DNA of 52,277 bases from Oscillospiraceae bacterium (GTDB taxonomy: Bacteria > Bacillota > Clostridia > Oscillospirales > SIG530). Both the position numbers and the translations under genes were made by a program. Where the stretch lies: the NCBI GenBank assembly GCA_015067075.1, contig SVND01000012.1:1-52277 (forward strand), given 5' to 3'. This document shows, piece after piece, positions 5,545 through 52,277 of this stretch (its first letter is position 1; every line of letters starts with the position of its first letter). The notes under the pieces were generated by a model. That model saw only the letters and a program-made list of their open reading frames with translations. It was not told where the DNA came from and did no database searches.

Positions 5545-5564
5545 GATCAAAGAGGAGAAATTGT

Positions 5565-36200: not shown

Positions 36201-37391
36201 ACATCCGCATCATCCGTAAAGCGCGCATCCGTTTGGTTCTATCTTAGAAGCTACGACACGGAAAATATGGCGAAGCTTTTGGGCTTTGAGGCTCTTGCGG
36301 CGAATACAACGATGAACGCAGGTGACAAGGCAGGCAATGGTCAGATTGCAGGTACGGAATCCAGCACAAAGTATGTAAACGACGCAATCGGTATGCTTAA
36401 GGATTATTATCGCGGACGTGAAAATTATGCCTACGTTGGCGTATACTACTCCGTAAGCAGTGAATTTGCTTCGCTTTCACCCTCAGGCTATAAGAGCATT
36501 CGCGGCAGCAACTACATTTCAGGCGTTTCAGGCTATGCGTCATGGGCGTATGCTCTTGAGGAGTTCAATATTCCTTACGCTTGCATACAGGAAGGCGCAC
36601 TTGCCGAAAGACTTGCGACATACACGGAAATGAAGGTGCTTATCCTTCCGTATATCAAGAATATTTCCGAGGCAAACGTAAACGCTGTAAAAGCATGGCT
36701 TGACGGTGACAGCACACGCCGCCTTATCTTGACAGGCGACGAAGCAAAAAACGAGCTCGGAAACTTTGCGGCACGCGATATGTCGTATCAAAAGTACGAC
36801 ACACCGATTTTGCTTGCCCTTAAAAACGATGCAAATTACAGCAATCAGATAGTTTACAGCAAGAACGACCCGGCAGTCGTGCTTTACAATATACACACCT
36901 CTGAAAGCTACAACAGCGAGATGAAAAAAGCTCTTGCAGGCGTTCGCACTCTGCTTACTGACAGCAAGCTTGCTCTTACGGGAGTAAATGCCCCTATAAC
37001 CATACTTGGTACGACAAACGGAATAAACTTTGGTAAAAAGACAGCGACGAACGAAACGGCGGAAACTGTGAATACAGTTGAGCTTTCGGCATTCAGCAAG
37101 GTCTACACAGCGGCGCATATCAACCGCACAACGGGAAGATACTACGTTGATTTTGTGAACTACGACATTGTAAAGTCCACGGGAGCTATTACGGCGAGCG
37201 TCGGCGGTACTGTTTCCGTAAAGCTTCCTGCACACCTTGCAGATAAGACTGCAGCGGAGCTTTGCGTGCTCACTTACCGTGACGGCGCAAGCGTAACGGA
37301 AACGACGGAGTTTACCGTAAGCGGCGGCACGCTTACCATAAAAATGCCGAGCTTCACCTTCTACTCTTCGCTTATGATAACAGCTAAATAA
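33210..37391 (+). CDS. Secreted multidomain glycoside hydrolase with N-terminal dockerin
   Basis: Protein of 1393 residues. A signal peptide covers residues 1-29. A type I dockerin occupies 31-85 with repeats GDCNGDGSVNINDVLLLLKR and GDIDNSGDIDITDVLLLLKM. Two CBM4/9-like beta-sandwich regions lie at about 95-305 and 320-490. The catalytic TIM barrel begins near residue 500 (PNMVTPWYGDFARFTC) and includes ADGFWIDNYLGW near 757, where the Asp is a candidate catalytic residue. A beta-galactosidase-trimerisation-like (GATase-like) domain follows near 1120-1180 (MKVLILPYIKNISEANV), then a C-terminal beta domain. The arrangement resembles GH42/GHL-type enzymes. The exact family cannot be assigned by eye. 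A terminator follows at 37399. Confidence 0.82.
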   Translation: MKKRIFTALISVMLVISMAIVLWMTASAAYVGDCNGDGSVNINDVLLLLKRVTDEQVDVNGLGDIDNSGDIDITDVLLLLKMVTSEQFVTATPTPSPQKYENLLEVTEETANIVYKTPWEISSIGMTTWSWGLPTENESVVSITDAAVGQYNGYDGKYAVDFDLDEAETQTASTGGYYLDVTMDGLEKGKTYTLFFMAKPDGISDLSDIIFEIQKEDNTCIGISNVIGTNKVLKAGEWTFCSITFVADPLPVGTHGTIDNDLSGFSAVKIIVYTRGAELEGDLYMDAFGLLEGSGYDESVYAGLEVPKIKTYLKATEETVTAINSVDVRTFAKENNYMAAGSWNGVGAPTNSVVMTDTVNKIVGEKSVKIFYSDTKAMPCKVMYPIAPGVLVPGETYTVQAYVKTKNVSASPSISVEFKKLSDNSDAAAVVQKSASMSKTQDWTLVSTTFTAPNDGVVTCVTISHWGITGTSWFDGLAVIRGESRIEDPEKIDWYEREVPNMVTPWYGDFARFTCNEGNNIVNYVERFNADSSTATGSLRNEGIGPFEALYCYVYGGRASVENVHASGRKVQAWIEGWGETRAYLLYIDTSVTDEFTGAVKELANYWTWAWSGPKSDADITGGKKLIWSGVQDWVNQTYPGFPVPESVSDALKYPDGTSALGYLDGYDRFSPNKAKLYDACAAKDLNGSWEAADAGGFVNSGATNTYGMVSLEYADGSKATPVGDMSFGKDAAAPIWLELQRLYIRQLLEWGADGFWIDNYLGWDNIRSNGMINKSFGEWSVWRFANEYLPSHTDVITRAVAEGATAALEAGGLTSASNYTNYEDFDVRDYLVRRYQDINGSACPKYSNGNYNLGASGWSNVAWQSDSVYAAYLAHKSLQQAVASIDLHRIIKEEAAALGLDPDSIAVTGNDFNYTSNGALYIDDLPTARDTSYIDRNGNLVTQTTNYKAYAINLGYSFLDVVHTENNGWLSLPVNSSATGSSIAPRARKTGEYNYMTSASSVKRASVWFYLRSYDTENMAKLLGFEALAANTTMNAGDKAGNGQIAGTESSTKYVNDAIGMLKDYYRGRENYAYVGVYYSVSSEFASLSPSGYKSIRGSNYISGVSGYASWAYALEEFNIPYACIQEGALAERLATYTEMKVLILPYIKNISEANVNAVKAWLDGDSTRRLILTGDEAKNELGNFAARDMSYQKYDTPILLALKNDANYSNQIVYSKNDPAVVLYNIHTSESYNSEMKKALAGVRTLLTDSKLALTGVNAPITILGTTNGINFGKKTATNETAETVNTVELSAFSKVYTAAHINRTTGRYYVDFVNYDIVKSTGAITASVGGTVSVKLPAHLADKTAAELCVLTYRDGASVTETTEFTVSGGTLTIKMPSFTFYSSLMITAK

Positions 37392-37512: not shown

Positions 37513-37538
37513 TGAGACAAAATTGGATTTCAAACGTA
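37513..37538 (+). promoter_or_regulatory. ECF-sigma-like promoter, copy 1
   Basis: TGAGAC 37513-37518, 16-bp spacer, CGTA 37535-37538, behind an A7 tract. The same element recurs at 43410, 50383 and 50513. The sequence around it (A-tract to about 37552) is almost identical to copy 3. The spacing equals that of Bacillus sigma-W-type promoters (TGAAAC-N16-CGTA). A 5' UTR of about 40 bases leads to AAAGGAG and the lipoprotein start. Confidence 0.6.
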
Positions 37539-37588
37539 CTATATAAATAGAAGAAAAAAATTTCTCAACTTTTAAAGGAGTGTTTGTT

Positions 37589-39211
37589 GTGAAAAAAATT
37601 ACAGCTATAGTACTTATCATGGTGATGCTTATTCTTGCGTCTTGTACGCCGAGCAATGTACAAACAGATGACATTACACCTACCGCTACTGTGACCGAAG
37701 CGCCGTCACAAGCACCGACTGCGACACCTACCGCCGCGCTGTCACAATTATCGTGGGAAACAAGCGGCGAGTGGCTTGCCGAAAAGTATCCCGATAAAAA
37801 ATGCTTGGATTGGTATATTTATGGCGGATTCGGAAATTTACCTGTAACGTTTTTGCAGAAATTGAATGAAGAGCTGGACGCAAAAGGATACGATTTTTAT
37901 GTAAATATTGTCGGCATAAGCTGGATGCTGAGTCTCGATGATTTTTGGGATAATGTTATGATAGATAATCCTGATATTATATCATTTGGTGTTGAAGCAT
38001 ACGGTACGGATGTATATTATATGGGCTATCAAAAGGATATATTTGCCTCGCTGGATGATTATTTAGAAACAGAGACGGGAAAAAAGCTTTGGAATGCATA
38101 TGATGAAAAGTATTGGGAGTCTTTGAAAATCAACGGTAAAATATACGGCCTTGAGACGGATGCAAGTGCTTTAGCCTCAACGGTTGCTCTTTTCATAAGA
38201 AATGATGCATTGGAAATGGCACAAATTAAAGCCGATGATTTTACATATGATTACGAAAAAGACAGACCGCTTTACGAAAAGCTTAAACAAGCGATGAATT
38301 CCATATCGGGAGAGCCTAATACGGCGCATAATGCTGTTTCGTCGATTGCGGGTGCACCTTCGATTGAAAATATGACGTGTCTTTTCGGAGCCATAGGATT
38401 TGATGAAACAAACCCGAACGGTGCTTTTGAAAACATCTATGAAAATGAAAAAATAATTCAGCATTTGTATGCAGTAGCTTCTTTATACAGCGACGGCACT
38501 TTTACTCAAAATGAAAGCATCCTTCTTGGTAACGGAGCTTCAGCTATAAGACTTACAACTCCTATGTATATTGCACAGTATGACATCAATGCGTCAAAAG
38601 CGGGGAATATTGAAACAACGGCGATTGAGCTGTTTACAGAAAAGGTAGTCAGCGCAACAATGAAAACTGTTTCTATAAATAAACATTCCGAGAACAAAGA
38701 TGAAGCTTTTGAACTGCTTGCGCTTATGCATACCGATGAAAATCTGGCAAATAAATTGGTGTACGGCGAAGAAGGCGTTGATTATGTAATTGAAAACGGA
38801 ATCGTTTGTTGGCCTGAAACATCGCAGCAGGAAAATAATGTGAGTGCTATGGCTACAAAATTCTTCCCTGAATCTTTATGCTTGCCGAAGGATGAGACAG
38901 GTATTTTTACATATAAAAAAGCGGTATTCGTCGAAGATATATCGGAGATGACGAAAGAATATAATGAAGCTCTTGAGCTTTCTGCCATATGCGGTTTCCA
39001 TTATGATGCATCGGGAAAGCACAAAGAGACTATCCAAAAAATATTGCAAATCATTTCACAGAAAAATAACAGCATATGGTGGTGTAACACCGGTGATATA
39101 GAGGAGCAGCTTGTTCAGCTTAATACAGAACTGAAGGAAGCGGGAATTGATGAACTTATAGCGGATATGAACGTACAGCTTGCCGAATGGAGAAAAGTCA
39201 CGGGAAAATAA
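37589..39211 (+). CDS. Solute-binding-protein-like lipoprotein (family A, copy 1)
   Basis: Protein of 540 residues. The start is taken as the GTG at 37589, eight bases after AAAGGAG, giving MKKITAIVLIMVMLILASC with Cys19 as lipid site; a GTG nine bases upstream is possible. A Thr/Pro/Ala linker follows, then an alpha/beta solute-binding-like fold with KINGKIYGLET and KTVSINKHSENKDEAFELLALM. The latter resembles the C-terminal part of LipO-type binding proteins with DUF3502-like ends, which use helical sugar permeases. No such permease is here. The C-terminus has a charged helix (EEQLVQLNTELKEAGIDELI), shared with the later copies. First gene of an ECF-promoter unit. Confidence 0.75.
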   Translation: MKKITAIVLIMVMLILASCTPSNVQTDDITPTATVTEAPSQAPTATPTAALSQLSWETSGEWLAEKYPDKKCLDWYIYGGFGNLPVTFLQKLNEELDAKGYDFYVNIVGISWMLSLDDFWDNVMIDNPDIISFGVEAYGTDVYYMGYQKDIFASLDDYLETETGKKLWNAYDEKYWESLKINGKIYGLETDASALASTVALFIRNDALEMAQIKADDFTYDYEKDRPLYEKLKQAMNSISGEPNTAHNAVSSIAGAPSIENMTCLFGAIGFDETNPNGAFENIYENEKIIQHLYAVASLYSDGTFTQNESILLGNGASAIRLTTPMYIAQYDINASKAGNIETTAIELFTEKVVSATMKTVSINKHSENKDEAFELLALMHTDENLANKLVYGEEGVDYVIENGIVCWPETSQQENNVSAMATKFFPESLCLPKDETGIFTYKKAVFVEDISEMTKEYNEALELSAICGFHYDASGKHKETIQKILQIISQKNNSIWWCNTGDIEEQLVQLNTELKEAGIDELIADMNVQLAEWRKVTGK

Positions 39212-39241
39212 ACAGTAAAAATCGAAAGGAGAAAGCGTGTA

Positions 39242-41080
39242 ATGAAGAAAATGAGTATTTTTGCCGCGGTATTTATAGTGATATTTTGTACGCTGACAGG
39301 TTGCGGTACGGAAAACGGCGATCAGCTTAAAAATGAAGCTGTATCTCTTGATAAGTTTATGTTTGTGGGTGAAGATATGCTTTGGCGATGGAATGTAAAC
39401 GGTTTCTCCTATGTGATTGCTGTATCTTCTCCGAAGATAGGGCGCGAGGCGGTGCTTTGCACGGAGGCAGGGTGCGAGCATACATCAAGCTCTTGTACCG
39501 CGCGGCTTGCTGATGACAGCAATTATTCTATGGACAGAGTCTTTTTGTATAAGGATAAGCTGCATATAATAGCTGCCTCTTATGTTGATAATGAAACAAT
39601 AATTTACAGATCAAATAAGGATGGCACGGGGCGAAAGGTTTTGTGTAAGATCCCATATGGCAGAGGAGTTGGCGATATAAACGGAGCTGTTTTAAAAGAT
39701 AACGAGCTTTGGTTAGCTTGCTCTGTGTTTGATCCGCTTAAGGATGATGTTTTCGCTTACAGTTTATCTATCGTATGCGTGGATCTTAGCAACGGGAAAT
39801 ATAACAATGTGTACGAATTTGAAGAAAAGCCGAAATCGGGTCAAATTTTCCATGTGTTAGAAATGGAAATGGCGGGAGATATTATCTATTGCAGGTATGG
39901 AGACGGAGCCTTGCTTGATGAAAAATATTTTCTTAATACAAAAACTGGCGAAGTGAAAAAAGCAACATTACCAAATGGTGATGCTGTTAATACTGTATAT
40001 GAGGCTTACGGCAATATAATGATATGTGCGTCGGGAGAAAATGTTTATGCGTTAGATGTGGAACGCAAAGTAGAAACAATGCTGATTGAAGGCGTTAGCG
40101 CGTTTAACAAACTAACAGTAGATAATAAATTTTATTTTAACGAAACAATTAAAACGCATTTTAACAAGAAGCTTGAATATGAAAAATGCTTCAATATGAG
40201 CACGGGTCAAATTGAAAGTACGAATGCAAGTGTAACATCCGGTAACGGAGAGGATATAGGATTTCTCGGGGAGACAGGTGAATGGATCTTTTGGAACTTT
40301 TATAAAGATGGAAAAAATCGAATCTGTTTTTCAGAAAAAGAGAAATTTTTGCAAGGAAACGCGCAAACAACGGATATAGGATGGATAAATGAGCTTAAAG
40401 AAGATGATACTGTTTTAAGTCCGACTCCCATAGCGAAAGATAAAACGGAGCTTGAAAAAAGCTTACCCACATTGGAACAAGTAAACGAAATGTTTACGGG
40501 TGCAGTATTTTATAATGATGGCTCGTTAGAAAAGTATTCGGAAAATGCATATTTGTTTGCTGTTGATTTCGGCGCGTATGCAACCGATTTTGAAAAAACA
40601 ACGGATCTGGTATCGTATTACCGACAGGATGAACAAGGATTACATATTTTCAATGCTTATGGCTTGTTTGACGGAAACAACAAAGAAAACTATGAGGTTA
40701 CGGAAACAGGCGGACAATTGGGAGCACCGACGGAGCTTGGCGCTTTGGGTGTGTTGAGCAGCTTCAGAAGTTATTTTGATAAGCTGAGTTATCTTCGCGA
40801 CGGCGTTGAAATGGGACGACCTGTGAAGGTGTACTATTGCGACATTTCTGAGAGCCAAGGGGATGGAACGATAAAAGAAGTAAGATACATATTCCATATT
40901 GATATGGAATACGGTATTGCATTGTATATGAATAAAAGCGTCGAAGGCGGCAGTATAAGCAAATTGACGGTTGAAAATATTGAATTTAATCAAGTCACAG
41001 ATGAAAATATTTTTGACATAGAGAGTTATAAAAAATGGCAAAGGGAAAACTCAAAGGAGGAATACCTGCCGAAAAAGTAA
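39242..41080 (+). CDS. Probable beta-propeller lipoprotein (family B, long member)
   Basis: Protein of 612 residues with a lipoprotein signal (lipobox LTGC, Cys about residue 20). Beta-propeller-like repeats follow. The family motif appears as LCTEAGCEHTSSSC (C-x4-C-x-H-x4-C, about residue 75), then YRSNKDGTGRKVL, the recurrent S-x-x-D-G-x-G-K phrase of this family. The last ~220 residues differ from the shorter paralogs and form a separate mixed domain (LPTLEQVNEMFTGAVFYNDG and after). The gene follows copy 1 of family A by 30 bp and precedes the permease by 18 bp. Function unknown; extracellular face of the membrane. Confidence 0.72.
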   Translation: MKKMSIFAAVFIVIFCTLTGCGTENGDQLKNEAVSLDKFMFVGEDMLWRWNVNGFSYVIAVSSPKIGREAVLCTEAGCEHTSSSCTARLADDSNYSMDRVFLYKDKLHIIAASYVDNETIIYRSNKDGTGRKVLCKIPYGRGVGDINGAVLKDNELWLACSVFDPLKDDVFAYSLSIVCVDLSNGKYNNVYEFEEKPKSGQIFHVLEMEMAGDIIYCRYGDGALLDEKYFLNTKTGEVKKATLPNGDAVNTVYEAYGNIMICASGENVYALDVERKVETMLIEGVSAFNKLTVDNKFYFNETIKTHFNKKLEYEKCFNMSTGQIESTNASVTSGNGEDIGFLGETGEWIFWNFYKDGKNRICFSEKEKFLQGNAQTTDIGWINELKEDDTVLSPTPIAKDKTELEKSLPTLEQVNEMFTGAVFYNDGSLEKYSENAYLFAVDFGAYATDFEKTTDLVSYYRQDEQGLHIFNAYGLFDGNNKENYEVTETGGQLGAPTELGALGVLSSFRSYFDKLSYLRDGVEMGRPVKVYYCDISESQGDGTIKEVRYIFHIDMEYGIALYMNKSVEGGSISKLTVENIEFNQVTDENIFDIESYKKWQRENSKEEYLPKK

Positions 41081-41098
41081 TGGATTGAAGGTGAAACG

Positions 41099-43309
41099 GT
41101 GAAAGGTGTTATTGCGGGCGAATTAAAAAAGCTTTTTTCTGAAAAAACAATGGTTTTTGCGATATTAGCAGTTATGATGCTTAATTTTGCGATACTGTAT
41201 GTTTCAAATTCCATTCAGAATAATTTTCCGTCGCAAGCTGTAATGAACAAAAAAGTGGTCAGTCAATATAGCGGAGAAGAACTGATACAAAAGGAAAAAC
41301 AGGCGGCTACTTATATGTGGCTTGAGACGGGCGATGGAAGTTTTTTAGCCTCGAAGGGAGTTTTGCCGCACGATTTTACCGAAGACCAGATCAAGCAGTA
41401 CACAGCGAGCTATAAAAACTATGTTCCGGTATACAGCGAAGATATAAGGGAAGAAATTTGGTATCTATCGTTATTGTGTGCGGATATGATAAGTACAGAT
41501 GATTATGAGGCATACCTGAATAAAGTGGAGAGTAATGCACAGGCATCGCTTGAACTGAATCTATTGATGGATAGCGATTCTTATGCGGTTAAAAGCTTGA
41601 TGCAAACAATACAGGCGTATAAAAATATGCACGGAATAAAGCTGACATACGGTATATCAAAAGGTGTAAATACCGTTGTAAGTTCACTTTTTTCTGACTT
41701 TTTAGTGATTGCGCTTTCTGTTTTTGCAGCAATTACAATAGTTTTAAAAGAAAAAGAAACGAATATGCTTCCGTTGTTATATTCAACAAAAAAAGGCAGA
41801 GCATCCACGGGATGGGCGAAGATTTTTACATCGCTTATAAGCTCAACGCTTGTCTGTGTGGCTGTTTACATATCAACTATGGTGTTTGCATGGCTGTTTT
41901 ATGGATTTGGCGATCTTAACAGACCTATACAGTCGGTGGTAGGATTTGTTGCGTCAACATGGCAGGTAAGTGTAGGAGAGTTTTTGCTTCTTTTCTTGCT
42001 GACGAGAATAGCCTTGACAGCAGTGATTACTTTGACGGCGATGGTGTTTTGTGCGGTGCTGGAGAGCAAGACTGTTGTCTTTTTCTTAACGATTTGTTTT
42101 ATCGGAATAGAAACAGCTTTGTACTCATTGATTCAAGGAAACGGCGCGTTCAGATTTTTTAAATATTTTAACATAATGTGTTTTTTCAACGGAAAAGAGC
42201 TTTTCGGCTCATCGATAACACTTGATTTTTTCAGTGAACCGATATCACTTTCATGGTGCTTTGCATTATTTGTTTTAATGCTGTTGTCAATAATGACGAT
42301 ATTGTTTGTTGCAATATTTTGTCATGTTCGAGGACGAGGTATTCCTAAAATTAAACTGAAATTGCATAGATTCGGAATTGGTGGAGAGTATACGCTGTTA
42401 TGGCGACATGAAATTTACAATCTGTTCATTTTGCAACGTGGAATACTGCCTGTGGCGGCGATTTTTATAATCTTGCCGTTGATGATCACACCTTGTATGC
42501 AGAAGCTGACAGCGTCAGAAGGCGCATATTTGTCGTATGTAAAAGAATTTAAGCAGATGAGCACCGAAGCGGCTTTGAATTATGCGGAAAAAGAACAATT
42601 ACGGCTTTTTGCTGATTTGTCTGCAACTACGGAAGGGATAACAGACAGTACGGAGATCGCAAAGATAAATGCGCAAAAAGCACAGGCGCAAAATCTTTTG
42701 TTGCCCTTAATGGAAGCGACAGAGAGCCTGAATTTGGCTCAGGGCGGAGAGCCGATAATAAAACTGTCGTACGATAGGCTGTTTAATAGGAACATCCAAA
42801 CAGAGATAACATTGTTGATGATGATCGTAAGTATTTCGCTTATTTGTATGAATGCATTGTCTTATGAACATGAAACTGGAATGACGGGAGTAATGGCGTG
42901 TACGTTACAATATAAAAAGTCACGTAAATATATATTTGCGATGGCAGTAATGATATCATTACTCATAAGTGTGCTTTTCTGTGTAGTTCAAATGATGTCA
43001 ATTATCAAGGTTATTTCTTTTGACGGCTTAACCGAACCTGTTTCTTCAATAGGCTATTTCGGAGCTTTGCCTGCACAAACACCGATTTGGTTTGCGCTGT
43101 TTTTGCTATACATGCTTAAGCTGATAGGTGGCTTAACTGCTGCTGTTGGTGTGATTTTTATATCAGGAAAAACCAAGCATTCCGTAAAAACATTTTGTAT
43201 TGCATTTTTATTGTTGATATTGCCTATATTGTTGAAGATAATGAATGTACCAAATTCCGAATGGTTTATATTGAATCCGCTTTTGCTAGGAACACCTATT
43301 TTCGCGTGA
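41099..43309 (+). CDS. Double ABC-2-type permease
   Basis: Protein of 736 residues, GTG start with GAAGG upstream. It seems to consist of two similar halves. Each begins with a short cytoplasmic segment and a membrane helix (GELKKLFSEKTMVFAILAVM, and LLWRHEIYNLFILQRGILPV at about 435), then a large extracellular loop, then four to five membrane helices. This is the layout of ABC-2 (lipid, antibiotic or protein export) permeases, here fused in one chain. No ATP-binding subunit lies in the window. The protein ends abruptly after NSEWFILNPLLLGTPIFA, where ABC-2 proteins often have one more helix. Probably the export or signalling partner of the neighbouring lipoproteins. Confidence 0.75.
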   Translation: MKGVIAGELKKLFSEKTMVFAILAVMMLNFAILYVSNSIQNNFPSQAVMNKKVVSQYSGEELIQKEKQAATYMWLETGDGSFLASKGVLPHDFTEDQIKQYTASYKNYVPVYSEDIREEIWYLSLLCADMISTDDYEAYLNKVESNAQASLELNLLMDSDSYAVKSLMQTIQAYKNMHGIKLTYGISKGVNTVVSSLFSDFLVIALSVFAAITIVLKEKETNMLPLLYSTKKGRASTGWAKIFTSLISSTLVCVAVYISTMVFAWLFYGFGDLNRPIQSVVGFVASTWQVSVGEFLLLFLLTRIALTAVITLTAMVFCAVLESKTVVFFLTICFIGIETALYSLIQGNGAFRFFKYFNIMCFFNGKELFGSSITLDFFSEPISLSWCFALFVLMLLSIMTILFVAIFCHVRGRGIPKIKLKLHRFGIGGEYTLLWRHEIYNLFILQRGILPVAAIFIILPLMITPCMQKLTASEGAYLSYVKEFKQMSTEAALNYAEKEQLRLFADLSATTEGITDSTEIAKINAQKAQAQNLLLPLMEATESLNLAQGGEPIIKLSYDRLFNRNIQTEITLLMMIVSISLICMNALSYEHETGMTGVMACTLQYKKSRKYIFAMAVMISLLISVLFCVVQMMSIIKVISFDGLTEPVSSIGYFGALPAQTPIWFALFLLYMLKLIGGLTAAVGVIFISGKTKHSVKTFCIAFLLLILPILLKIMNVPNSEWFILNPLLLGTPIFA

Positions 43310-43409
43310 TTTGATATGTGTCATATCGATATGATTTTCTCTTAAAAGAGCTAAGAAAGCTGATAAAAACAGCGAAAAAGAAAATTTTTCAAAAAAATTT
43401 CGAAAAAAG

Positions 43410-43435
43410 TGAGACAGAATTGAATTTTTAACGTA
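43410..43435 (+). promoter_or_regulatory. ECF-sigma-like promoter, copy 2
   Basis: TGAGAC 43410-43415, 16-bp spacer, CGTA 43432-43435, behind A/T tracts. The upstream stretch from about 43345 (AAAAGAGCTAAGAAAGCTG) is repeated upstream of copy 4 near 50438. A 14-bp palindrome TCATATCGATATGA lies at 43321-43334. Confidence 0.6.
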
Positions 43436-43448
43436 ATATACAAAATAA

Positions 43449-43499
43449 GGCGGTAGTTTTTGGTGGTGCAAAATTGCATAAAAATTACCGCCATATTTT
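43449..43499 (+). promoter_or_regulatory. Leader hairpin, possible attenuator
   Basis: Thirteen-pair stem GGCGGTAGTTTTT (43449-43461) with AAAAATTACCGCC (43480-43492), one G-U pair, 18-base loop, followed by a T-rich stretch. It lies between copy 2 of the ECF-like promoter and the first lipoprotein gene, so it can act as a terminator or leader structure. Confidence 0.5.
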
Positions 43500-43517
43500 T
43501 AAATCAGGAGGATACAT

Positions 43518-44645
43518 ATGAAAAAAGTTATTACAGTTTTACTCGCGGTTTTATTTTGCTTTGCAGTTGCATCTTGTGACGAGGGAAAAGAAGAAAAAAG
43601 CTTGATAAAGACAGGGAGAGACTTTTGTGCGGTAGAAAACGGTGTGTTTTTTATTGATAACGAAAATATGAAGTTTTACGACTTTGAAACAAGGCAGATC
43701 GTGTATCTTTGCAACAAAGCAAACTGTAACCACGAGCCCTATAGAAGTGAAACAAATCCGCTTCCTACATGTGATTCCGTTGCAATGAAAGGTGAGGGTA
43801 TTATAGGCGTAATGGCATATAATAATACTCTTTATTGGGTAATGTCGGATATGGCGCAAAAACCGTCAGTATGTGTATATGAAAGTAAGCTTGACGGAAG
43901 TGGGAAAAAGCTTGTGACATCTATTGACGGTTTAACAATGACAAATTATCTTCCTATATTTTGCGCAAACGGAAAAATGTATTTGCATCAAAAGTCCTTT
44001 GAAAATTGGGATGCGGGAGCGAATGAAGAAAATGAACGGGAACGTATTCATTGCATTGATCTTAAGAGTGGAAAAAGCGAATGTCTTTTAGATATAGAAG
44101 CAGGAAAAGGATATTCAAGAGTAACATCGATGTATTTAAAAAACAACGAGATGTACTATGTATTGCGGAATTGCGGATATGACGGGGAAGAATATGAATA
44201 TTCGGATATGACTAGCGATGTAGAAATACATAAGCTTGATCTTCAAACAAAAGAAAAGACGATATTGTCGGCAGACGGAAAAGACGATTACGACCTTTTG
44301 ATTGGAATTTCGTCGGAAGGTGAGTTGATATACAATAATCGGAAGGGAAATAAGCAAAAAATATATAATGAGAGCAACACAGTAATAGCTGAATATGAAG
44401 CGTATGCTACACCGTACATAGATGGGGACAAGCTGATACTGAATTTTGTAGATGGTGGAAAAAGTCGATATGAAATAAAGAGCCTGACAACGGGAGAGCT
44501 GATAGATGAGTTTATTTGTAATACAACAGCTATATGGAGTGATACGGATAAATGGTTTATTTCAATGGGTACAACTGGCGGTGACAGAACGTTTTCAGTA
44601 ATTGACAAGGATGATTTTTACAGCGGAAAAATAGCATGGCATTAA
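43518..44645 (+). CDS. Probable beta-propeller lipoprotein (family B)
   Basis: Protein of 375 residues with lipobox AVASC (Cys20). The body is made of repeated four-strand units, as in TolB/DUF5050-like propellers. The motif LCNKANCNHEPYRSE (C-x4-C-x-H, with a further Cys 13 residues on) is near residue 75, followed by YESKLDGSGKKLV. The product is close to that of the next gene along its full length. AGGAGGAT precedes the ATG. It opens a five-gene unit behind copy 2 of the ECF-like promoter, in which all products are lipoproteins. Ligand unknown. Confidence 0.75.
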   Translation: MKKVITVLLAVLFCFAVASCDEGKEEKSLIKTGRDFCAVENGVFFIDNENMKFYDFETRQIVYLCNKANCNHEPYRSETNPLPTCDSVAMKGEGIIGVMAYNNTLYWVMSDMAQKPSVCVYESKLDGSGKKLVTSIDGLTMTNYLPIFCANGKMYLHQKSFENWDAGANEENERERIHCIDLKSGKSECLLDIEAGKGYSRVTSMYLKNNEMYYVLRNCGYDGEEYEYSDMTSDVEIHKLDLQTKEKTILSADGKDDYDLLIGISSEGELIYNNRKGNKQKIYNESNTVIAEYEAYATPYIDGDKLILNFVDGGKSRYEIKSLTTGELIDEFICNTTAIWSDTDKWFISMGTTGGDRTFSVIDKDDFYSGKIAWH

Positions 44646-44665
44646 AATGATTAAGGAAGGTACAT

Positions 44666-45802
44666 ATGAAAAAGTTTATAACAATTTTACTCGCGGTGTT
44701 ACTTTGCTTTGCGGTTGCATCTTGTGGTGAAAAGAAAAAAGGTGACGTTGTAATATCAGGAAACGGTTATTGCGTTACGGATAATGGTATTTACCACATT
44801 AACCGAGACAATATGTGCTTCTCCGATTTTGCAACAGGATATGAGGTTGTACTTTGCAATAAACCTGAATGCAATCATGCGCCCTATAACAGTGAAACGA
44901 ATCCACTTCCGAGCTGTGCGTCTGTCGCAATGGCTGATGAAATTTTATTTGACGTTGTTGCAGGCGGAGAAAAAATGTATTGGATAAATTCAGGTGCAGG
45001 TGCTTCGCCCAATATAAGCATATATGAAAGCAACCTTGACGGAAGCGGGAAAAGACTTATTGCGCAAATTGATGGCTTCGTAATGATAAATTACTTACCA
45101 ACAGTATACATGGAAGGAAAGCTGTTTTTGCATCAGCGCTCCTTTGAAAGTTGGGATGCGGCGACAAATAGCGAAAACGAACGTGAATATATTCGATGTG
45201 TTGACATTGCAAGCGGAAAGGTTAAAACGGTGATTGACATCGAGGCGGACGAGTATTTTAACGCAGTTGACAGTATGACGGCATGGGGAGGAAAGCTTTA
45301 TTTCACACTGAATAAAAACGTATATAAACAGCTTGAAAATGGATTGGAGCTTGTTGAGATAGACCAAACAGTCTATGAGGTAGACGGTGGAACGCTTGAA
45401 AAAAAGTTTTTGTTTGAAAATGACGGAATAATGAGAAGCGTTTACGGATTTACAAGCAAAGGAGAAATAATTTATGTCGAAAGCAATGGCGAGCAGAGAA
45501 AGCTTTTAAAAGGCAAGGGCAAGGCTTTACTCGACATTTTTAACAGCGGACGAGCTTTTATAGACAGCTATGATGATAAAATCATTTATGTAGATTATAA
45601 TGAAGGCGATGATGGATATTCTGTTATAGATATAGCGACAGGCGAAACGGTAACGGAGATTTCATGTGACAGTAAAATTATAGCAGGCTTTACGGACGAG
45701 CTTGTTGTTGCACGAGATATCGTCGATGGACGATTTTTCTACATGGCGGCGAAGAAGAACGAGCTGTATAATGGCATAATAAATTGGTTTAGCATGAATT
45801 AG
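44666..45802 (+). CDS. Probable beta-propeller lipoprotein (family B)
   Basis: Protein of 378 residues, a tandem paralog of the gene 20 bp upstream. Lipobox AVASC, then LCNKPECNHAPYNSE (C-x4-C-x-H...C) and YESNLDGSGKRLI. The first 20 codons nearly match those of the neighbouring lipoprotein genes at DNA level. Sites: AAGGAAGG before the ATG. The two propellers diverge more in their last third, which suggests different ligands or partners. Function unknown. Confidence 0.75.
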   Translation: MKKFITILLAVLLCFAVASCGEKKKGDVVISGNGYCVTDNGIYHINRDNMCFSDFATGYEVVLCNKPECNHAPYNSETNPLPSCASVAMADEILFDVVAGGEKMYWINSGAGASPNISIYESNLDGSGKRLIAQIDGFVMINYLPTVYMEGKLFLHQRSFESWDAATNSENEREYIRCVDIASGKVKTVIDIEADEYFNAVDSMTAWGGKLYFTLNKNVYKQLENGLELVEIDQTVYEVDGGTLEKKFLFENDGIMRSVYGFTSKGEIIYVESNGEQRKLLKGKGKALLDIFNSGRAFIDSYDDKIIYVDYNEGDDGYSVIDIATGETVTEISCDSKIIAGFTDELVVARDIVDGRFFYMAAKKNELYNGIINWFSMN

Positions 45803-45828
45803 TTGATTGAAAACAAGGGAGGATACTC

Positions 45829-47436
45829 ATGAAAAAGCTTATAACAGTTTTACTCGCGGTTTTATTTTGCTTTGCATTTGCATCTTGTAACGATGAGAAA
45901 AATCCCGATGCAACACCGACACCTGAGGCAACGCCTACAAAAACTGCACAGCCTGCAACTGCTACACCGACTGAAATGCCTGAATGGCTTAAAACATCGC
46001 AAGAAATGAATGAAAAATATGCCGACAAAACACGTGTTGTCTGGCATATGAGTACAGGTGCAAACTGCTCCCCGGAGTTTGCGAGAGCGATAAATGAGTA
46101 TCTCGATAAAAAAGGATATGATTTTTTCATTGATCTGTACAGTATGAACGGTGATTGGTCGGGATATAGTTTTGTAAGCGATCTTAAAAAAGACGGTGTG
46201 CAAGCTGATATTATCGAAACAAACGGATGTATGGATCCAATAGGAGATGCATATTACGCATATGTCAGGGACGGATTTTTCGCGCCGATGACGGAATTTT
46301 TTGAAACAGAATCGGGAAAAGAACTTCGCGCATTTTATGATGAAAAAATATGGGAAGCTGCGGAAATAAATGACGAGGTGTACGGTGTTACTACGCGAGC
46401 GGTAAATGATTATCAAAGAGTATACGTTTTTAACAAGGCGATTTTGGAGAAATATGAACTTTCCGTGGATGATTTTACGGGCGACTTAGAAAAAGATTAC
46501 GAGCTTTTTAAACGTGTATATGACGCGGAGATAAAGGAAACCCCTGATTTTGTAACGGTTTTATTTAATGAAAGCAGTGAAACGTTGCCGTATGAAAGAG
46601 TAATGACGAATTCAGTATTTCCGCGTTGCATTGTTGCAAAAACAGGTGAAGAAAATGGAAATATACTTAATTTGTACGAACAGCAAGACGTAGCACAAAA
46701 GCTCTATACGGTGAAAAAATATATGGACAGCGGTTTTTGTCAGCAAGGAAGATTGCCTGAAGATATGCATAACTTTTTCTGTATATATACATTAGTGGGC
46801 AAAAAGTATGAAATGCGTGAAATAGCACAAAAAAATGCTCCGATCACAATGAAGGGAGAGCTTTTGCCGTTGCCTGACGATGTTCAAATAGAAGGAAAGT
46901 GGCTTGAAGGAACGACACGAGTTATAACTGCGATAGAAAGATGCTTTGGTGTTGCATCGTGGAGCGAGCATAAAGATGAAGCGTTTGAAGTAATAAAGCT
47001 TATGAGCACAGATGCTGAATTTGCAAACATATTGATGTACGGCAAGGAAGGCAGTACTTATGAAATAGAGGCTGGAAAAGCAGTATATACAATGTCGGAA
47101 AGTGAGATAGGTGCAAGAGGAAGCTTTTACATAAATGAATTACTGCTGTTGCCGAGAAAGGGAGAGGCTGAGAATAAAGCGGAAATATACAGACAGCTTT
47201 ATGAAAAAGCTGAAACGTCGGCAGTAACGGGCTTCCATTACGACAATCCAGAAACATTGGAGCTGCAACAAACTATCGGCAGAATAGAGCAGGAATATGC
47301 AGGGCTTTGGAGCGGTGCATACGAGGATGTAGACGCGACACTTGCGGAGCTTAACGCAAAACTTTATGAAGCGGGATTGCAAACGCTTTTGGATGATATA
47401 AACACGCAGTTTAAAGAGTGGAAAAGCATAAAATGA
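45829..47436 (+). CDS. Solute-binding-protein-like lipoprotein (family A)
   Basis: Protein of 535 residues. The signal (MKKLITVLLAVLFCFAFASC) is of the same sequence type as the preceding propeller genes, so signal and body have been shuffled. A Thr/Pro/Ala-rich linker follows, then an alpha/beta solute-binding-like domain with DDFTGDLEKDYELFKRVYD, FGVASWSEHKDEAFEVIKLM and a DUF3502-like end (NILMYGKEGSTYEI). The last ~45 residues form a conserved helix block (ATLAELNAKLYEAGLQTLLD) shared with the next gene. GGGAGGAT precedes the ATG. No permease or ATPase belongs to it here. Confidence 0.75.
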   Translation: MKKLITVLLAVLFCFAFASCNDEKNPDATPTPEATPTKTAQPATATPTEMPEWLKTSQEMNEKYADKTRVVWHMSTGANCSPEFARAINEYLDKKGYDFFIDLYSMNGDWSGYSFVSDLKKDGVQADIIETNGCMDPIGDAYYAYVRDGFFAPMTEFFETESGKELRAFYDEKIWEAAEINDEVYGVTTRAVNDYQRVYVFNKAILEKYELSVDDFTGDLEKDYELFKRVYDAEIKETPDFVTVLFNESSETLPYERVMTNSVFPRCIVAKTGEENGNILNLYEQQDVAQKLYTVKKYMDSGFCQQGRLPEDMHNFFCIYTLVGKKYEMREIAQKNAPITMKGELLPLPDDVQIEGKWLEGTTRVITAIERCFGVASWSEHKDEAFEVIKLMSTDAEFANILMYGKEGSTYEIEAGKAVYTMSESEIGARGSFYINELLLLPRKGEAENKAEIYRQLYEKAETSAVTGFHYDNPETLELQQTIGRIEQEYAGLWSGAYEDVDATLAELNAKLYEAGLQTLLDDINTQFKEWKSIK

Positions 47437-47527
47437 AGTGAATAGGAGGAACAACAATGAAAAAACTTACAGCAATAGTATTGGCGATGTTGACGATATG
47501 CATGCTTTTTACTGCATGCAATGAAAA
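47323..47527 (+). repeat. Duplicated junction repeat, copy A
   Basis: About 205 bp covering the last ~38 codons of one family A gene, the spacer and the first ~23 codons of the next gene. It matches copy B at 48948-49152 with few differences and no length change (the ATG lies at offset 134 in both). Confidence 0.8.
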
Positions 47528-49061
47528 TTCGAACTCGGGAATCATAACAAAACCGTCTGAAGATCCTACGCCGACATTGCAGGAATGTATTACTATTACT
47601 GTACAACCTACCCCTGCCGATTCCAAAGTTGTAACAAGAGTAAAACTTGAAAGCTATTTTGAAGAAAAATACCCCGATAAAAAGAAAATAGTTTATGTTG
47701 CTCCGTATTTGATAAATATAGATGCATCCGGAAATAAGGTGGTTATAACCGACACGGAAAATGTATCAAATGAAATTGCATTAAATGAATATTTAGATGC
47801 AATAGGCTGTGATTTTTACTTGTATTTCGATTGGCAAGAGAGTGCAGCGTATAAAGATAATATTTTTTCGATGTTTGGTGGTGGACACCAAATAGAGCTT
47901 GTTGATACATATAGTGATTATTTAAAAAGAAAGGTTGAAAATGAACAAGTTGATATCATACATGCTGGCTATGTGGTAAGAGTGGGTTATGTGGATTTAA
48001 ATGAGCCGCTTTTATATTGTTTGTCGAATAGCTTTTTTTCAGATGTTACTGGATTCATAAAAAACAGTTTGATTTACAAAAAAAATCCGAAAAATTATTG
48101 GAAATCACTGTCGTGTGATGGAAAAATATATGGAATTATGATGAAAAATTTCGATTTTGTGTCGTGTGCAAGAGAATTGGAAATAGACGGTGCTTTAATG
48201 GAGGCGGCTGGATACAAAGTTGAGGATTTTACAGGGCAAATAGAAAAAGATTATGAAAAGCTTAAAGAAATGCAAAAATATAAGAAAGAAGGGACAAAAG
48301 CACTCCTTGAATTAAAGCATAAAAACGTAAAAGGAATAACTAGTATACGTAACAAAGGGTTTGCTTCGGCAAAAACAGGAGAAGATAAAATATTTAATCT
48401 TTATGAAAAAGAAGAAATTAAGGAATACTTTAAGTTTTTACAGAGAGTCAATGCGGATGAGCTTTTGGAAAAAGACTTTTTTATGAGCGGAAATATAAAC
48501 AATGTGGCTAAATATCAGCTTGATTATTTGGATGATAATTATGAACAGCCGAATATAATAAAGGAATTTTTGGCTGCTTCAAATACTGAGTACTATAAGA
48601 TTAGTATTTTTTCTGAAAAAACACAGGCTGTAAATGCAAAAACAGCAGTTGGAGTGGCGGAAAAATCTGAAAATAAAGCGGAAGCATTTAAGGTGCTGGA
48701 GCTTTTGTATACAGATGAAAAAGCTAAGAATATCCTCATTTATGGAAACGAAGAAGGAAACGGCAAGGCGAATAATTTGTATCAGATAACTTTGGACGTA
48801 TCTATAAATGAGGAAGTATATGAACAAGCGATAGAAAATGTTGAGCTTTCGCCCATATGCGGTTTTTGGTATTTTGACAATGCGGAAACATGGGCAGAGC
48901 TTGCAAAGATAGAAGCTGAATACGAAGGACTTTGGTTTGGTGAATACGAGGACGTAGACGCGACACTTGCGGAGCTTAACGCAAAGCTTTATGAAGCAGG
49001 CTTACAAACGCTTTTGGATGATATAAACGCACAGTATAAAGCGTGGAAAGGCATAAAATGA
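47457..49061 (+). CDS. Solute-binding-protein-like lipoprotein (family A)
   Basis: Protein of 534 residues with lipobox LFTAC (Cys21). It is a paralog of the gene 20 bp upstream, but the middle has diverged strongly: more Lys, Ile and Asn, and visibly AT-richer codons. The C-terminal ~45 residues (YEDVDATLAELNAKLYEAGL) and the 20-bp junction are almost identical at DNA level to the upstream copy (see the repeats at 47323 and 48948). It keeps TAVGVAEKSENKAEAFKVLE, the binding-protein signature. Role unknown. Confidence 0.75.
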   Translation: MKKLTAIVLAMLTICMLFTACNENSNSGIITKPSEDPTPTLQECITITVQPTPADSKVVTRVKLESYFEEKYPDKKKIVYVAPYLINIDASGNKVVITDTENVSNEIALNEYLDAIGCDFYLYFDWQESAAYKDNIFSMFGGGHQIELVDTYSDYLKRKVENEQVDIIHAGYVVRVGYVDLNEPLLYCLSNSFFSDVTGFIKNSLIYKKNPKNYWKSLSCDGKIYGIMMKNFDFVSCARELEIDGALMEAAGYKVEDFTGQIEKDYEKLKEMQKYKKEGTKALLELKHKNVKGITSIRNKGFASAKTGEDKIFNLYEKEEIKEYFKFLQRVNADELLEKDFFMSGNINNVAKYQLDYLDDNYEQPNIIKEFLAASNTEYYKISIFSEKTQAVNAKTAVGVAEKSENKAEAFKVLELLYTDEKAKNILIYGNEEGNGKANNLYQITLDVSINEEVYEQAIENVELSPICGFWYFDNAETWAELAKIEAEYEGLWFGEYEDVDATLAELNAKLYEAGLQTLLDDINAQYKAWKGIK

Positions 49062-49152
49062 AGTGAATAGGAGGAACAACAATGAAAAAACTTACAGCGA
49101 TAATATTGGCAATGTTAACGATATGCGTGCTTTTTGCTGCATGCAATGAAAA
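48948..49152 (+). repeat. Duplicated junction repeat, copy B
   Basis: Matches 47323-47527 base for base with few differences. Here it joins a family A end to a family B start, while copy A joins two family A genes. The leader part recurs a third time at 51248. Confidence 0.8.
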
Positions 49153-50290
49153 AAGTGACAACACAACTACGGTGATTAAGAGTAACTTGCCAGGCCTTGT
49201 ATCAAACGGGTATCTTTTAACAGCACATGTGGAAGGAAAAGTGCGGATATATGCGCCGGAAACAGGGTATTCGATGATATATTGCAATCAGCCCGGCTGT
49301 AAGCATGAACAGTACAGCGAAAACAATATTGCCCCGTCATGTACTGCTGTATTTCCTGAAGACGGAGTGCTTATGGGAGCGTTTTTCTATAATGAGAAAA
49401 TGTATATGTTCGGTTGGGATAACTCGCTACTTAATACGGTTTTTTACAGTAGCAATCTTGATGGAACGGGCAAAAAGAAGCTTGGAAGGATGGAAAACGC
49501 AGCAATAGATCATAATTACGGTTTGCTGATAAATGACGGAATACTGTATTTTCCGGGAGAAGGTAGGAGTTTTGACGGAAAGCAATCGACTACAAAAAGT
49601 GTTATAGCGGCGATAGATATGAAAACGGGAGAGGGCGAGATAATTCATGAGATTGGAGAGAGTCAGTATAATCTTTTTAACGAGGTATATATGGCAGACG
49701 ATTACTTTTTCTATTTAGCAACAACGCCTGAAACTGCGAAGAAGATAACAGAGGCACTTAACAAAGGTGATAAAGAGTTTAGTAAGACTCTTCCCGATGG
49801 ATGGGGTGTGCTTTATTGTTTGAATATACATACGGGCGAAAATAAAAAGCTTTACGATAGCGGATGGCATGATTTTTATTGGCCGTTGAAGGTGAATATA
49901 GATAGCACTTTCTTTTACAGCCGCACTGTCAGAGATGAAAACGGAAATGCTGTATCTAAACAAATACGCGAATATAACGCGGAAACAGGAGAAGACAAGG
50001 AGTGCCGATTCGGCAATATAAGTATAATAAGGCGCTTTGAGAATAAAATTTACTACGGCTTGAACGCTTCAAATGAAGCGAGCGTCAACTACGTATACGA
50101 TGTGAAGACAGGAAAGTCGCATAAATTAGAAAATGAAATCGACTTATCGAAAGTAAATGTAACATCTGCTGATGAGAGTAATCTGTTTTGCAACGCTAAT
50201 ATGAGTAGCGGTAATACAGTTATGTCGTGGATGACCTTTGATGAATTTGAGAATGGCTTGACACAGCCGCATATTTTCGATGAGCAGTAA
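49082..50290 (+). CDS. Probable beta-propeller lipoprotein (family B)
   Basis: Protein of 402 residues with lipobox LFAAC. Its first ~70 bases copy those of the preceding family A gene, so a family B body is joined to a family A leader. It has YCNQPGCKHEQYSEN followed by a Cys (C-x4-C-x-H-x11-C) and YSSNLDGTGKKKL. The product closely matches the truncated gene at the window end. AGGAGGAAC precedes the ATG. It is the last gene of the five-gene unit; a 3'-end relic and two further ECF-like promoters follow. Confidence 0.75.
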   Translation: MKKLTAIILAMLTICVLFAACNEKSDNTTTVIKSNLPGLVSNGYLLTAHVEGKVRIYAPETGYSMIYCNQPGCKHEQYSENNIAPSCTAVFPEDGVLMGAFFYNEKMYMFGWDNSLLNTVFYSSNLDGTGKKKLGRMENAAIDHNYGLLINDGILYFPGEGRSFDGKQSTTKSVIAAIDMKTGEGEIIHEIGESQYNLFNEVYMADDYFFYLATTPETAKKITEALNKGDKEFSKTLPDGWGVLYCLNIHTGENKKLYDSGWHDFYWPLKVNIDSTFFYSRTVRDENGNAVSKQIREYNAETGEDKECRFGNISIIRRFENKIYYGLNASNEASVNYVYDVKTGKSHKLENEIDLSKVNVTSADESNLFCNANMSSGNTVMSWMTFDEFENGLTQPHIFDEQ

Positions 50291-50310
50291 TGAAACTGAT
50301 GAGTGAGCGC

Positions 50311-50354
50311 GATGGAACGATATAAACACGCAGTTTGAAGCGTGAAAAAGCATA
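50311..50354 (+). pseudogene. Relic of the 3' end of a family A lipoprotein gene
   Basis: GATATAAACACGCAGTTT and the following AAAAGCATAAAA match the last ~15 codons of the gene ending at 47436, with one small indel. No reading frame leads into it, so it is a leftover of a deleted or recombined copy. Confidence 0.65.
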
Positions 50355-50382
50355 AAAAAATTTAAAGATTTTTTAAAAAAAG

Positions 50383-50408
50383 TGAGACAAAATTGGATTT
50401 CAAACGTA
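50383..50408 (+). promoter_or_regulatory. ECF-sigma-like promoter, copy 3
   Basis: TGAGAC 50383-50388, 16-bp spacer, CGTA 50405-50408. About 48 bases including the A-tract are identical to copy 1. It lies 130 bp upstream of copy 4 in tandem. Confidence 0.58.
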
Positions 50409-50512
50409 CTATATAAATAGAGGGCTAATTTATCCGAAAAGAGCTAAAAAACTAATAAAAACAGCGGAAAAAACAACTTTTTTCAAAAAAATTAAAAAAA
50501 GTTTGAAAAAAG

Positions 50513-50538
50513 TGAGACAAAATTGATTTTGAATTGTA
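50513..50538 (+). promoter_or_regulatory. ECF-sigma-like promoter, copy 4
   Basis: TGAGAC 50513-50518, 16-bp spacer, TGTA 50535-50538, behind A/T tracts. The leader after it (CTCTCAATCTGTAAAGGAGG) resembles that after copy 1 (TCTCAACTTTTAAAGGAG). Confidence 0.55.
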
Positions 50539-50587: not shown

Positions 50588-50662
50588 ATGACAATTCAAA
50601 GTGAAAAGTCTCGCGAAACACCGCCGTGGAAAGTAGCGCAGCTTATTGAAGGCGGAAAATAA
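50588..50662 (+). CDS. Short leader ORF, 24 codons
   Basis: ATG 8 bases after a full AAAGGAGG site, ending in TAA at 50660-50662. The peptide starts MTIQSEKS, has PPWKVAQ in the middle and ends LIEGGK. It occupies the place where copy 1 of the promoter has the lipoprotein start. GGCGG at 50651-50655, overlapping its last codons, can pair with CCGCC at 50683-50687. It may be a translated leader peptide, a small functional peptide or the relic of a gene start. No family recognised. Confidence 0.45.
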   Translation: MTIQSEKSRETPPWKVAQLIEGGK

Positions 50663-50726: not shown

Positions 50727-51176
50727 ATGAAAAAGGTTATATCATTGATAATGGTAGTGTTGATGCTTACTATGCCCATGGTAGCGTCGGCAGAGAATTT
50801 GTTTGACAGAGTGCTTATACCGCAAGCAGCATCAACTCGCGGAAGCGGAACGTCTACAACGATTGGTCAATGGCATATATCTGCAGGTGTAACACGAGGA
50901 ACAAATTCTTCGTCTGTCGGATATGCATATGCATGGACGAACATAACTTGGATGGGTTATCCGAGTAACCCCACGGATCTTTGCTACACACAAACGGCAG
51001 CAATAGTAACATATAACGATGGTTCATATGCCTCTAATAATTCGGTTTATTATAGCGGTTCTACAAACTGCCAGGCGATAGACAACAGCGCTGTCGGTAA
51101 AACAGTAACACGTGCACAAGGTGCACATTTAGCTGAAAGCGGCGGACAGGATTGGACAACTTCTACTTCCTATTAA
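50727..51176 (+). CDS. Small secreted Ser/Thr-rich protein
   Basis: Protein of 149 residues. The signal peptide MKKVISLIMVVLMLTMPMVA is cut after VASA, and there is no lipobox, unlike all its neighbours. The mature part (about 125 residues) is rich in Ser, Thr, Gly, Tyr and Trp, with two Cys (DLCYT and TNCQA) that could form a disulfide. Phrases such as TIGQWHISAGVTRG and YAYAWTNITWMGY suggest a small beta protein. No known family is recognised; a bacteriocin-like or surface-binding role is conceivable. GGAGGAAC precedes the ATG, and a strong hairpin follows at 51185. Confidence 0.75.
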   Translation: MKKVISLIMVVLMLTMPMVASAENLFDRVLIPQAASTRGSGTSTTIGQWHISAGVTRGTNSSSVGYAYAWTNITWMGYPSNPTDLCYTQTAAIVTYNDGSYASNNSVYYSGSTNCQAIDNSAVGKTVTRAQGAHLAESGGQDWTTSTSY

Positions 51177-51247: not shown

Positions 51248-52277
51248 ATGAAAAAACTTACAGCAATAATATTGGCGATGTTAACGATATGCATGCTTTT
51301 TACTGCATGCAATGAAAAAAGTGACGACACAACTACGGTGATTAAGAGTGATGGCTCAAATCATGCATCGAACGGTTATCTGTTATCTGCATTTGAGGAA
51401 CGAAAAGTGCGGATATATGCACCTGAAACGGGATATTCGATGATATATTGCAATCAGCCCGGCTGTAAGCATGAACAGTACAGTGAAAATAATATTGCCC
51501 CGTCCTGTACTGCTGTATTTCCGGAAGCGGGCACACCTATAGGAGCGTTTTTTTACAATGACCGAATGTATATGTTCGGTTGGGATGAAAGCTTGCTTAA
51601 TACTGTAATATATAAAGGCAGGCTTGACGGCACGGAGAAAAAGAAGCTTGGCGTTTTGGAAAATGCGGCGATAATTTCCTCTCAAGATATGATGATAAAT
51701 AACGACGTGCTGTATTTTATGGCGGAAGGACGAAGCTTTGACGGGAAAAAAACAGTGATAAAAAGCGTAATTGCTTCTATGGATCTTGATTCGGGAGAAG
51801 GAAAGGTAGTTTATGAGGTTGGCGAAAGCAGGCATGGTGTTATTTCCCCATACAAAGGCGATGTGGGGAAAGACTACTTTTTCTATGTGGCAAGCGATCC
51901 CGAAACACAGGAATTGATCAGCGAATCAAGAACTACTGACAAAGAGTTTTGGAAAACTCTTCCCGACGGATATGGAAGGTTGCATTGCGTTAACGTACAT
52001 ACGGGAGAAGATAAAGAGCTTTTTCAAAGCGGTTTCAGTGAATCTTACTTTCCGATTTTGGTGCATATAGGCAATACATTTTTTTATAGCCATAATGTCA
52101 ATGATGAAAACGGTAATAACTTGATATCGGAGATAAGAGAATATAATGCAGAAACGGGCGAGGATAAACCGTGCAGATTTGGAGATGTCAGCGTAATGTG
52201 GCTTTTCGGTAATAAGATATATTACGGATTGAATGCTTCAAATGAAGCGAGCGTCAACTACGTATACGATGTGAAAA
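51248..52277 (+). CDS. Probable beta-propeller lipoprotein (family B), cut by window end
   Basis: At least 343 residues are visible, open to the window edge. TAGGAGGG precedes the ATG. Lipobox LFTAC, then YCNQPGCKHEQYSEN and a Cys 12 residues later, the family B motif. It closely matches the 49082 gene, and the last ~40 bases of the window are identical to 50063-50103 of that gene. The 5' leader (about 70 bases) is again the shared MKKLTAIILAMLTIC leader. It is probably a recent tandem copy under copies 3 and 4 of the ECF-like promoter. Confidence 0.8.
   Translation, partial: MKKLTAIILAMLTICMLFTACNEKSDDTTTVIKSDGSNHASNGYLLSAFEERKVRIYAPETGYSMIYCNQPGCKHEQYSENNIAPSCTAVFPEAGTPIGAFFYNDRMYMFGWDESLLNTVIYKGRLDGTEKKKLGVLENAAIISSQDMMINNDVLYFMAEGRSFDGKKTVIKSVIASMDLDSGEGKVVYEVGESRHGVISPYKGDVGKDYFFYVASDPETQELISESRTTDKEFWKTLPDGYGRLHCVNVHTGEDKELFQSGFSESYFPILVHIGNTFFYSHNVNDENGNNLISEIREYNAETGEDKPCRFGDVSVMWLFGNKIYYGLNASNEASVNYVYDVK

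What the first reader, a model, noticed from the sequence alone, without database searches (positions are those of the whole stretch)
37513..50538. Four copies of an ECF-sigma-like promoter control the lipoprotein cluster
TGAGAC-N16-(C/T)GTA occurs at 37513, 43410, 50383 and 50513, always behind A-tracts and in front of lipoprotein or secreted-protein transcription units. I did not notice it elsewhere in the window, where other genes have TTGAAA/TTGACA-N17-TATAAT. The spacing is exactly that of the known Bacillus sigma-W class (TGAAAC-N16-CGTA). Copies 1 and 3 share about 48 identical bases. The inference is one surface regulon under a single ECF sigma factor.
Basis: partly seen in the sequence, partly recalled or inferred. 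Interest (0 to 1): 0.78.

Follow-up and report, generated by a model that had tools for sequence, protein, structure and literature searches.

The report
Self-controlled ECF sigma promoter for lipoproteins
The four repeated sequences look like real start signals for a stress-type transcription switch (an ECF sigma factor): the same signal also stands in front of the genome's four genes for one family of such switches, and in front of their nearest relatives in another bacterium, so one switch family probably turns on a set of surface lipoproteins and transporters.

Summary
In detail: TGAGAC-N16-YGTA occurs exactly four times in the window (0.12 expected), and copies 1 and 3 share 50 identical bases. 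Genome-wide there are 14 sites of the extended motif AAAAGTGAGAC-N16-YGTA-NTAT. Ten belong to lipoprotein, secreted-protein or ABC-transporter clusters. The other four lie 46-60 bases before the four members of one ECF sigma family; both complete members are followed by a single-TM DUF4367 anti-sigma-like gene. None of the 13 other sigma genes detected has the motif. The nearest outside relatives of this sigma, an intact gene and a truncated duplicate in a genome of another family (G037), are preceded by TGAGAC-N16-CGTA, the only two such sites in that 2.7-Mb genome; -35 and -10 blocks are identical to ours although the spacer has diverged. The two sigmas share the recognition-helix stretch STVGTILQRSLK; more distant homologues lack both helix and motif. 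The ECF-promoter reading is well supported by sequence. Two details fail: there are four paralogous sigmas rather than one, and they are not SigW (the -35 core is GAC, not AAC). Some regulon promoters are near-copies of a sigma gene's own promoter, suggesting growth by promoter copying. No transcript data exist.

The parts
37513..37538 (+). ECF-type promoter 1 (-35 GTGAGAC, 16-base spacer, -10 CGTA); start of transcription predicted about 37544-37547
   Evidence: exact match; same 50 bases as at 50372-50421
37589..39211 (+). SBP-type lipoprotein (SBP_bac_1 weak, DUF3502), first gene of operon 1; GTG start 50 bases after the promoter (mechanical ORF start 37580)
39242..41080 (+). lipoprotein of the CxxxxCxH family, operon 1
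41099..43309 (+). large membrane protein resembling an ABC-2-type permease, operon 1; its 3' end is 93% identical to the C11 permease-like gene
   Evidence: no Pfam match, so the permease label is by hydrophobic character and context
43410..43435 (+). ECF-type promoter 2
   Evidence: identical or nearly so at C40:27195 and C11:58157
43442..43499 (+). strong 5'-leader hairpin followed by a U-rich stretch, possible attenuator or mRNA stabiliser
   Evidence: -24.8 kcal/mol, z -5.6; nearly the same sequence in the C11 and C40 copies
43518..44645 (+). beta-propeller-type lipoprotein, operon 2
   Evidence: model is of the 44666 paralogue
44666..45802 (+). beta-propeller-type lipoprotein, operon 2
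45829..47436 (+). SBP-type lipoprotein with DUF3502, operon 2
47457..49061 (+). SBP-like lipoprotein, operon 2
   Evidence: 3' end resembles the 45829 gene
49082..50290 (+). beta-propeller-type lipoprotein, operon 2
50383..50408 (+). ECF-type promoter 3, upstream member of a tandem pair
50513..50538 (+). ECF-type promoter 4, downstream member; differs by 1 of 46 bases from the promoter of the sigma genes on C13 and C51
50588..50662 (+). 24-codon ORF with a Shine-Dalgarno sequence (MTIQSEKSRETPPWKVAQLIEGGK), first in operon 3; conserved on C40
50727..51176 (+). small secreted protein (149 aa, signal peptide by eye, no lipobox)

Best explanation
The four sites are promoters of a small, rare family of ECF sigma factors. 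In this genome the family has four members (contigs C13, C51, C53, C72), each behind the same promoter, so each should activate its own operon. In the two complete members the sigma gene overlaps a gene for a probable membrane anti-sigma factor with one transmembrane helix and an outside DUF4367 domain. Inferred mechanism: an outside signal inactivates the anti-sigma; freed sigma directs RNA polymerase to GTGAGAC-N16-CGTA; sigma makes more of itself; and operons for surface lipoproteins, a small secreted protein and ABC-2-type transporters switch on. Shown by sequence: the motif, its link to this sigma clade in two bacterial families, its absence from other sigma genes, the operon layout. Inferred: sigma binding, anti-sigma action, start sites, the signal.
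For: (4 sites against 0.12 expected). (14 genome sites; 4 lie before ECF-like genes). (only 4 close members of this sigma family; all 4 have the motif 46-60 bases before the start). (none of 13 other sigma genes has the motif). (Sigma70_r4_2 above cut-off in both complete sigmas; DUF4367 above cut-off in both next genes). (one TM segment, about residues 63-90, in both anti-sigmas). (the nearest homologues in G037, on C11 and C14, are preceded by TGAGAC-N16-CGTA, the only two such sites in that genome). (-35 block 7/7 and -10 block 4/4 identical between G000 and G037, spacer only 7-9 of 16). (STVGTILQRSLK shared by C53 sigma and G037 sigma; other homologues differ and lack the motif). (extended motif 12 here, 1 in 196 other genomes). 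My arithmetic: 14 sites in 2 x 2.26 Mb give about 5e-4 chance per gene of a site within 150 bases upstream; 4 of 4 were found.
Against: No transcript ends, no binding data. Many sites are recent duplicates, so 14 sites are not 14 independent observations; the independent ones are about three sigma promoters here plus one in G037. Homologues at 19-32% identity lack the motif, so it is confined to a close clade. The C72 sigma scores below the general ECF model cut-off (34.6 against 42.9), and region 2 is weak in both. The C13 and C51 sigma genes are cut off by contig ends, so their region 4 and any anti-sigma gene were not seen.
Confidence: 0.86

Rival explanations
1. The sites are duplicated DNA (a repeat that moves or recombines with lipoprotein genes) and the shared letters reflect recent copying rather than promoter function.
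For: Long identities between copies: 50 bases between copies 1 and 3, 374 bases at 95% with C40, 130-base tandem cassettes, and contigs breaking at the repeats.
Against: The same two blocks stand before sigma genes that are only 41% identical, and before homologues in another family where spacer and flanks have diverged but -35 and -10 have not. Duplication explains the number of copies, not the block conservation.
Confidence: 0.07
2. The sites are housekeeping sigma-A promoters; the conserved TATATA or TATAAT just after YGTA is the -10 box.
For: NTATATA follows YGTA in most copies, and in G037 it reads TATAAT.
Against: No TTGACA-like hexamer lies 16-18 bases before it in the copies read; the sigma-70 scan does not pick these positions on the + strand and finds no more promoter-like sites than shuffled DNA. 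The conserved blocks are GTGAGAC and YGTA.
Confidence: 0.04
3. Division of labour: each of the four paralogous sigmas drives only its own promoter class, e.g. C13/C51 sigma for promoter 4 and C53 sigma for promoters 1 and 3 (a refinement of the best explanation, not exclusive of it).
For: Promoter 4 differs from the C13/C51 sigma promoter by 1 of 46 bases; promoters 1 and 3 are nearest to the C53 promoter (6 of 46 differ).
Against: All share the same -35, and their -10 boxes differ only CGTA/TGTA; cross-recognition looks likely. Promoter similarity may reflect copying rather than specificity.
Confidence: 0.3

Closest known systems
SigW-RsiW of Bacillus subtilis (TGAAAC-N16,17-CGTA; PMC2375139)
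   Same: Same spacing, same -10 CGTA, sigma next to a membrane anti-sigma, targets at the cell surface (the last two for SigW from general knowledge); SigW is among the few solved relatives by sequence (5wuq, E 7e-4)
   Different: -35 core is GAC instead of AAC with an invariant G in front; sigma far below the SigW model cut-off; no zinc-type HxxxCxxC motif in the anti-sigma
SigV-RsiV of C. difficile and B. subtilis (PMC9044953, PMC6066255)
   Same: Sigma plus membrane anti-sigma; a plausible model for release by regulated intramembrane proteolysis
   Different: Outside domain here is DUF4367; four paralogous systems share one promoter; no protease or ligand known here

Membership tests
ECF sigma factor | only the sigma2 and sigma4 domains as promoter-binding and core-contacting regions (PMC8103513) | tested here: met
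   P0001 192 aa: region 4 above Pfam cut-off, region 2 at 2.7e-4 just below; general ECF model TIGR02937 53.2 bits over cut-off 42.9. P0003 matches region 4 above cut-off and the ECF model below cut-off, but is 41% identical to P0001
ECF sigma factor | positive autoregulation (hallmark, not universal) | tested here: inconclusive
   Same motif before all four sigma genes and before the G037 homologues; activity not measured
ECF sigma factor | -35 AAC and -10 CGT (early hallmark) | tested here: not met
   -10 CGT present in most sites (TGT in four), but -35 core is GAC; PMC8103513 says the definition was later restricted to the domains, so this does not exclude membership
ECF sigma factor | co-transcribed cognate anti-sigma (hallmark) | tested here: inconclusive
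   Overlapping next gene with one TM and DUF4367 in both complete loci; binding untested; next gene not seen for the truncated C13 and C51 loci
SigW (Bacillus) | SigW model score above cut-off | tested here: not met
   51.6 bits (P0001) and 42.1 (P0003) against cut-off 209; 42.9 and 34.1 against 243
SigW (Bacillus) | TGAAAC-N16,17-CGTA promoter | tested here: not met
   TGAGAC in all sites; spacing met

The most novel reading that the evidence does not exclude
A group of ECF sigmas with an unusual GTGAGAC -35 element whose regulon grows by copying the sigma gene's own promoter in front of lipoprotein and ABC-transporter cassettes, so that four sensors (four anti-sigmas) feed one surface programme. 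G037 C14 shows the step in frozen form: a truncated sigma duplicate, promoter included, sits ahead of a lipoprotein-ABC operon.
Probability: 0.4. Interest if true: 0.55.

Novelty: new member of a known kind. Interest (0 to 1): 0.42.

Why it matters
It turns a motif seen by eye into a defined sigma/anti-sigma/promoter set with a specific target list in a poorly studied lineage (no other genome of its family is held here). The C. difficile start-site study states that consensus sequences for that organism's three ECF sigmas remained to be identified (PMC7438776), so a promoter-sigma pairing supported across two families is useful. The near-identity of some regulon promoters to a sigma gene's own promoter offers a concrete, testable case of how a regulon expands.

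Tried and rejected
Housekeeping promoter reading: no suitable -35 hexamer. SigW identity: model scores far below cut-off. Another sigma of the genome as autoregulated owner of the motif: none of 13 others has it upstream. Wider conservation: distant homologues in the order and class lack it; only G037 among 21 genomes of its family has a close homologue. A named-genome scan gave one weak, partial relative. Viral contigs: one motif hit without an A-tract, judged chance, and no sigma relative. Plasmids: none. Papers: no paper held TGAGAC, ECF, sigma factor and promoter together, none held DUF4367 with sigma, and the large ECF reclassification paper is not in the library, so the ECF group number could not be assigned.

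Full report
Observation. The pattern TGAGAC-N16-YGTA is present at exactly the four stated places, all on the + strand, against 0.12 expected in shuffles. Copies 1 and 3 share 50 contiguous bases. The window is a whole contig, C21, of a 2.26-Mb draft genome in 85 contigs. In the whole genome the bare pattern has 14 hits, against 6 for the pattern read backwards, so the bare count is weak evidence. With the A-tract and flanks included there are 14 sites against 0 or 1 in the control, and only one hit in 196 other genomes of the order.

Genome-wide targets. The 14 sites fall into two groups. Ten belong to clusters of lipoproteins, small secreted proteins and ABC transporters: four in the window, five on C40 (one of them degenerate, CATA, at the cluster edge, with no obvious target) and one on C11. 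The other four stand 46-60 bases before the start of genes that look like ECF sigma factors on C13, C51, C53 and C72. One further hit of the bare pattern (C81) lacks the A-tract and A/T-rich follow-up and looks like chance.

The sigma genes. A genome search with the C53 protein finds only these four close members; a fifth hit on C85 is marginal. C53 and C72 are complete and score as ECF sigmas: region 4 above the Pfam cut-off in both, the general ECF model above cut-off for C53, 34.6 against 42.9 bits for C72. C13 and C51 are cut by contig ends, apparently at a repeat. In both complete loci the next gene overlaps the sigma gene and encodes a protein with one transmembrane segment (about residues 63-90) and a DUF4367 domain above cut-off, which is the layout of a sigma with a membrane anti-sigma. 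Of 13 other sigma-like genes in the genome none has the motif in the 330 bases before its region 2.

Independent evidence from another family. The closest homologue outside this genome is in G037, a genome of a different family in the same order. Its intact sigma (C11) and a truncated duplicate (C14) are both preceded by TGAGAC-N16-CGTA and an A/T-rich stretch, and these are the only two TGAGAC-N16-CGTA sites in that 2.7-Mb genome. Between the two genomes the -35 (7 of 7) and -10 (4 of 4) blocks are unchanged while the spacer keeps only 7-9 of 16 bases. The sigma recognition-helix stretch STVGTILQRSLK is identical in C53 and G037; C72 has STVNTIVNRLYK. More distant homologues differ there and lack the motif. 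Sigma and promoter therefore change together.

Regulon and mechanism. In the window the promoters lead three gene runs: 37589-43309 (two lipoproteins and a large membrane protein resembling an ABC-2-type permease), 43518-50290 (five lipoproteins) and 50588 onwards (a 24-codon ORF, a secreted protein, another lipoprotein). The last 127 bases of the window are identical to the end of C11, so the cluster probably continues there with another copy of the promoter, a lipoprotein, a permease-like protein and an ABC ATPase. A lipoprotein of this group is predicted to be a beta-propeller (mean pLDDT 72; Foldseek matches to TolB and other propellers). In G037 the C14 promoter also leads to a lipoprotein, membrane proteins and an ABC ATPase, so the theme is conserved. 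I infer that a signal outside the cell relieves the anti-sigma, by proteolysis as in RsiV systems (PMC9044953) or otherwise, and that freed sigma activates its own operon and the surface operons.

It proposed one sigma of the SigW class. There are four paralogues. They are not SigW (about 52 and 42 bits against a 209 cut-off), and the -35 core is GAC where SigW and early-defined ECFs have AAC (PMC2375139, PMC8103513). Promoter 4 differs by one base in 46 from the C13/C51 sigma promoter, and promoters 1 and 3 are nearest to the C53 promoter. Promoter copying is the simplest account, and G037 C14, where a truncated sigma duplicate including its promoter heads a lipoprotein-ABC operon, looks like the same process. 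The direction of copying (sigma promoter to target, or the reverse) is not shown.

Limits. Nothing here measures transcription. Many copies are recent duplicates, so the independent support rests on about three sigma promoters here and one in G037. The clade is rare: close members in two genomes among those sampled in the order and class. The start-site positions, sigma-anti-sigma pairing and the signal are inferences.

Noticed in passing
window 43442-43499: Strong hairpin with U-rich tail in the leader between promoter 2 and the first lipoprotein gene (z -5.6); nearly the same in the C11 and C40 copies. Possible attenuator or stabiliser.
   Followed up: partly
window 50588-50662; L017 (C40) counterpart: 24-codon ORF with Shine-Dalgarno sequence, first after promoter 4; two amino-acid changes in the C40 copy.
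   Followed up: partly
window 50727-51176 and L017:10443-10871: Small secreted proteins without a known family following the tandem promoters on both contigs.
   Followed up: partly
window 52151-52277: Contig end identical over 127 bases to the end of C11, an assembly-style overlap, so the cluster probably continues there.
   Followed up: partly
L016 and L018 position 1 (C13, C51): Two sigma genes, within 473 bases 96% identical, both break at a contig end; the remainder was not found in the assembly.
   Followed up: no
L093 (G037 C14) 4198-8238: Truncated sigma duplicate, with its promoter, sits ahead of a lipoprotein, membrane proteins and ABC ATPase; reads as promoter capture.
   Followed up: partly
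window 33210-37391: 1393-aa secreted protein with an N-terminal dockerin-like repeat directly upstream of the cluster (by eye, not searched).
   Followed up: no
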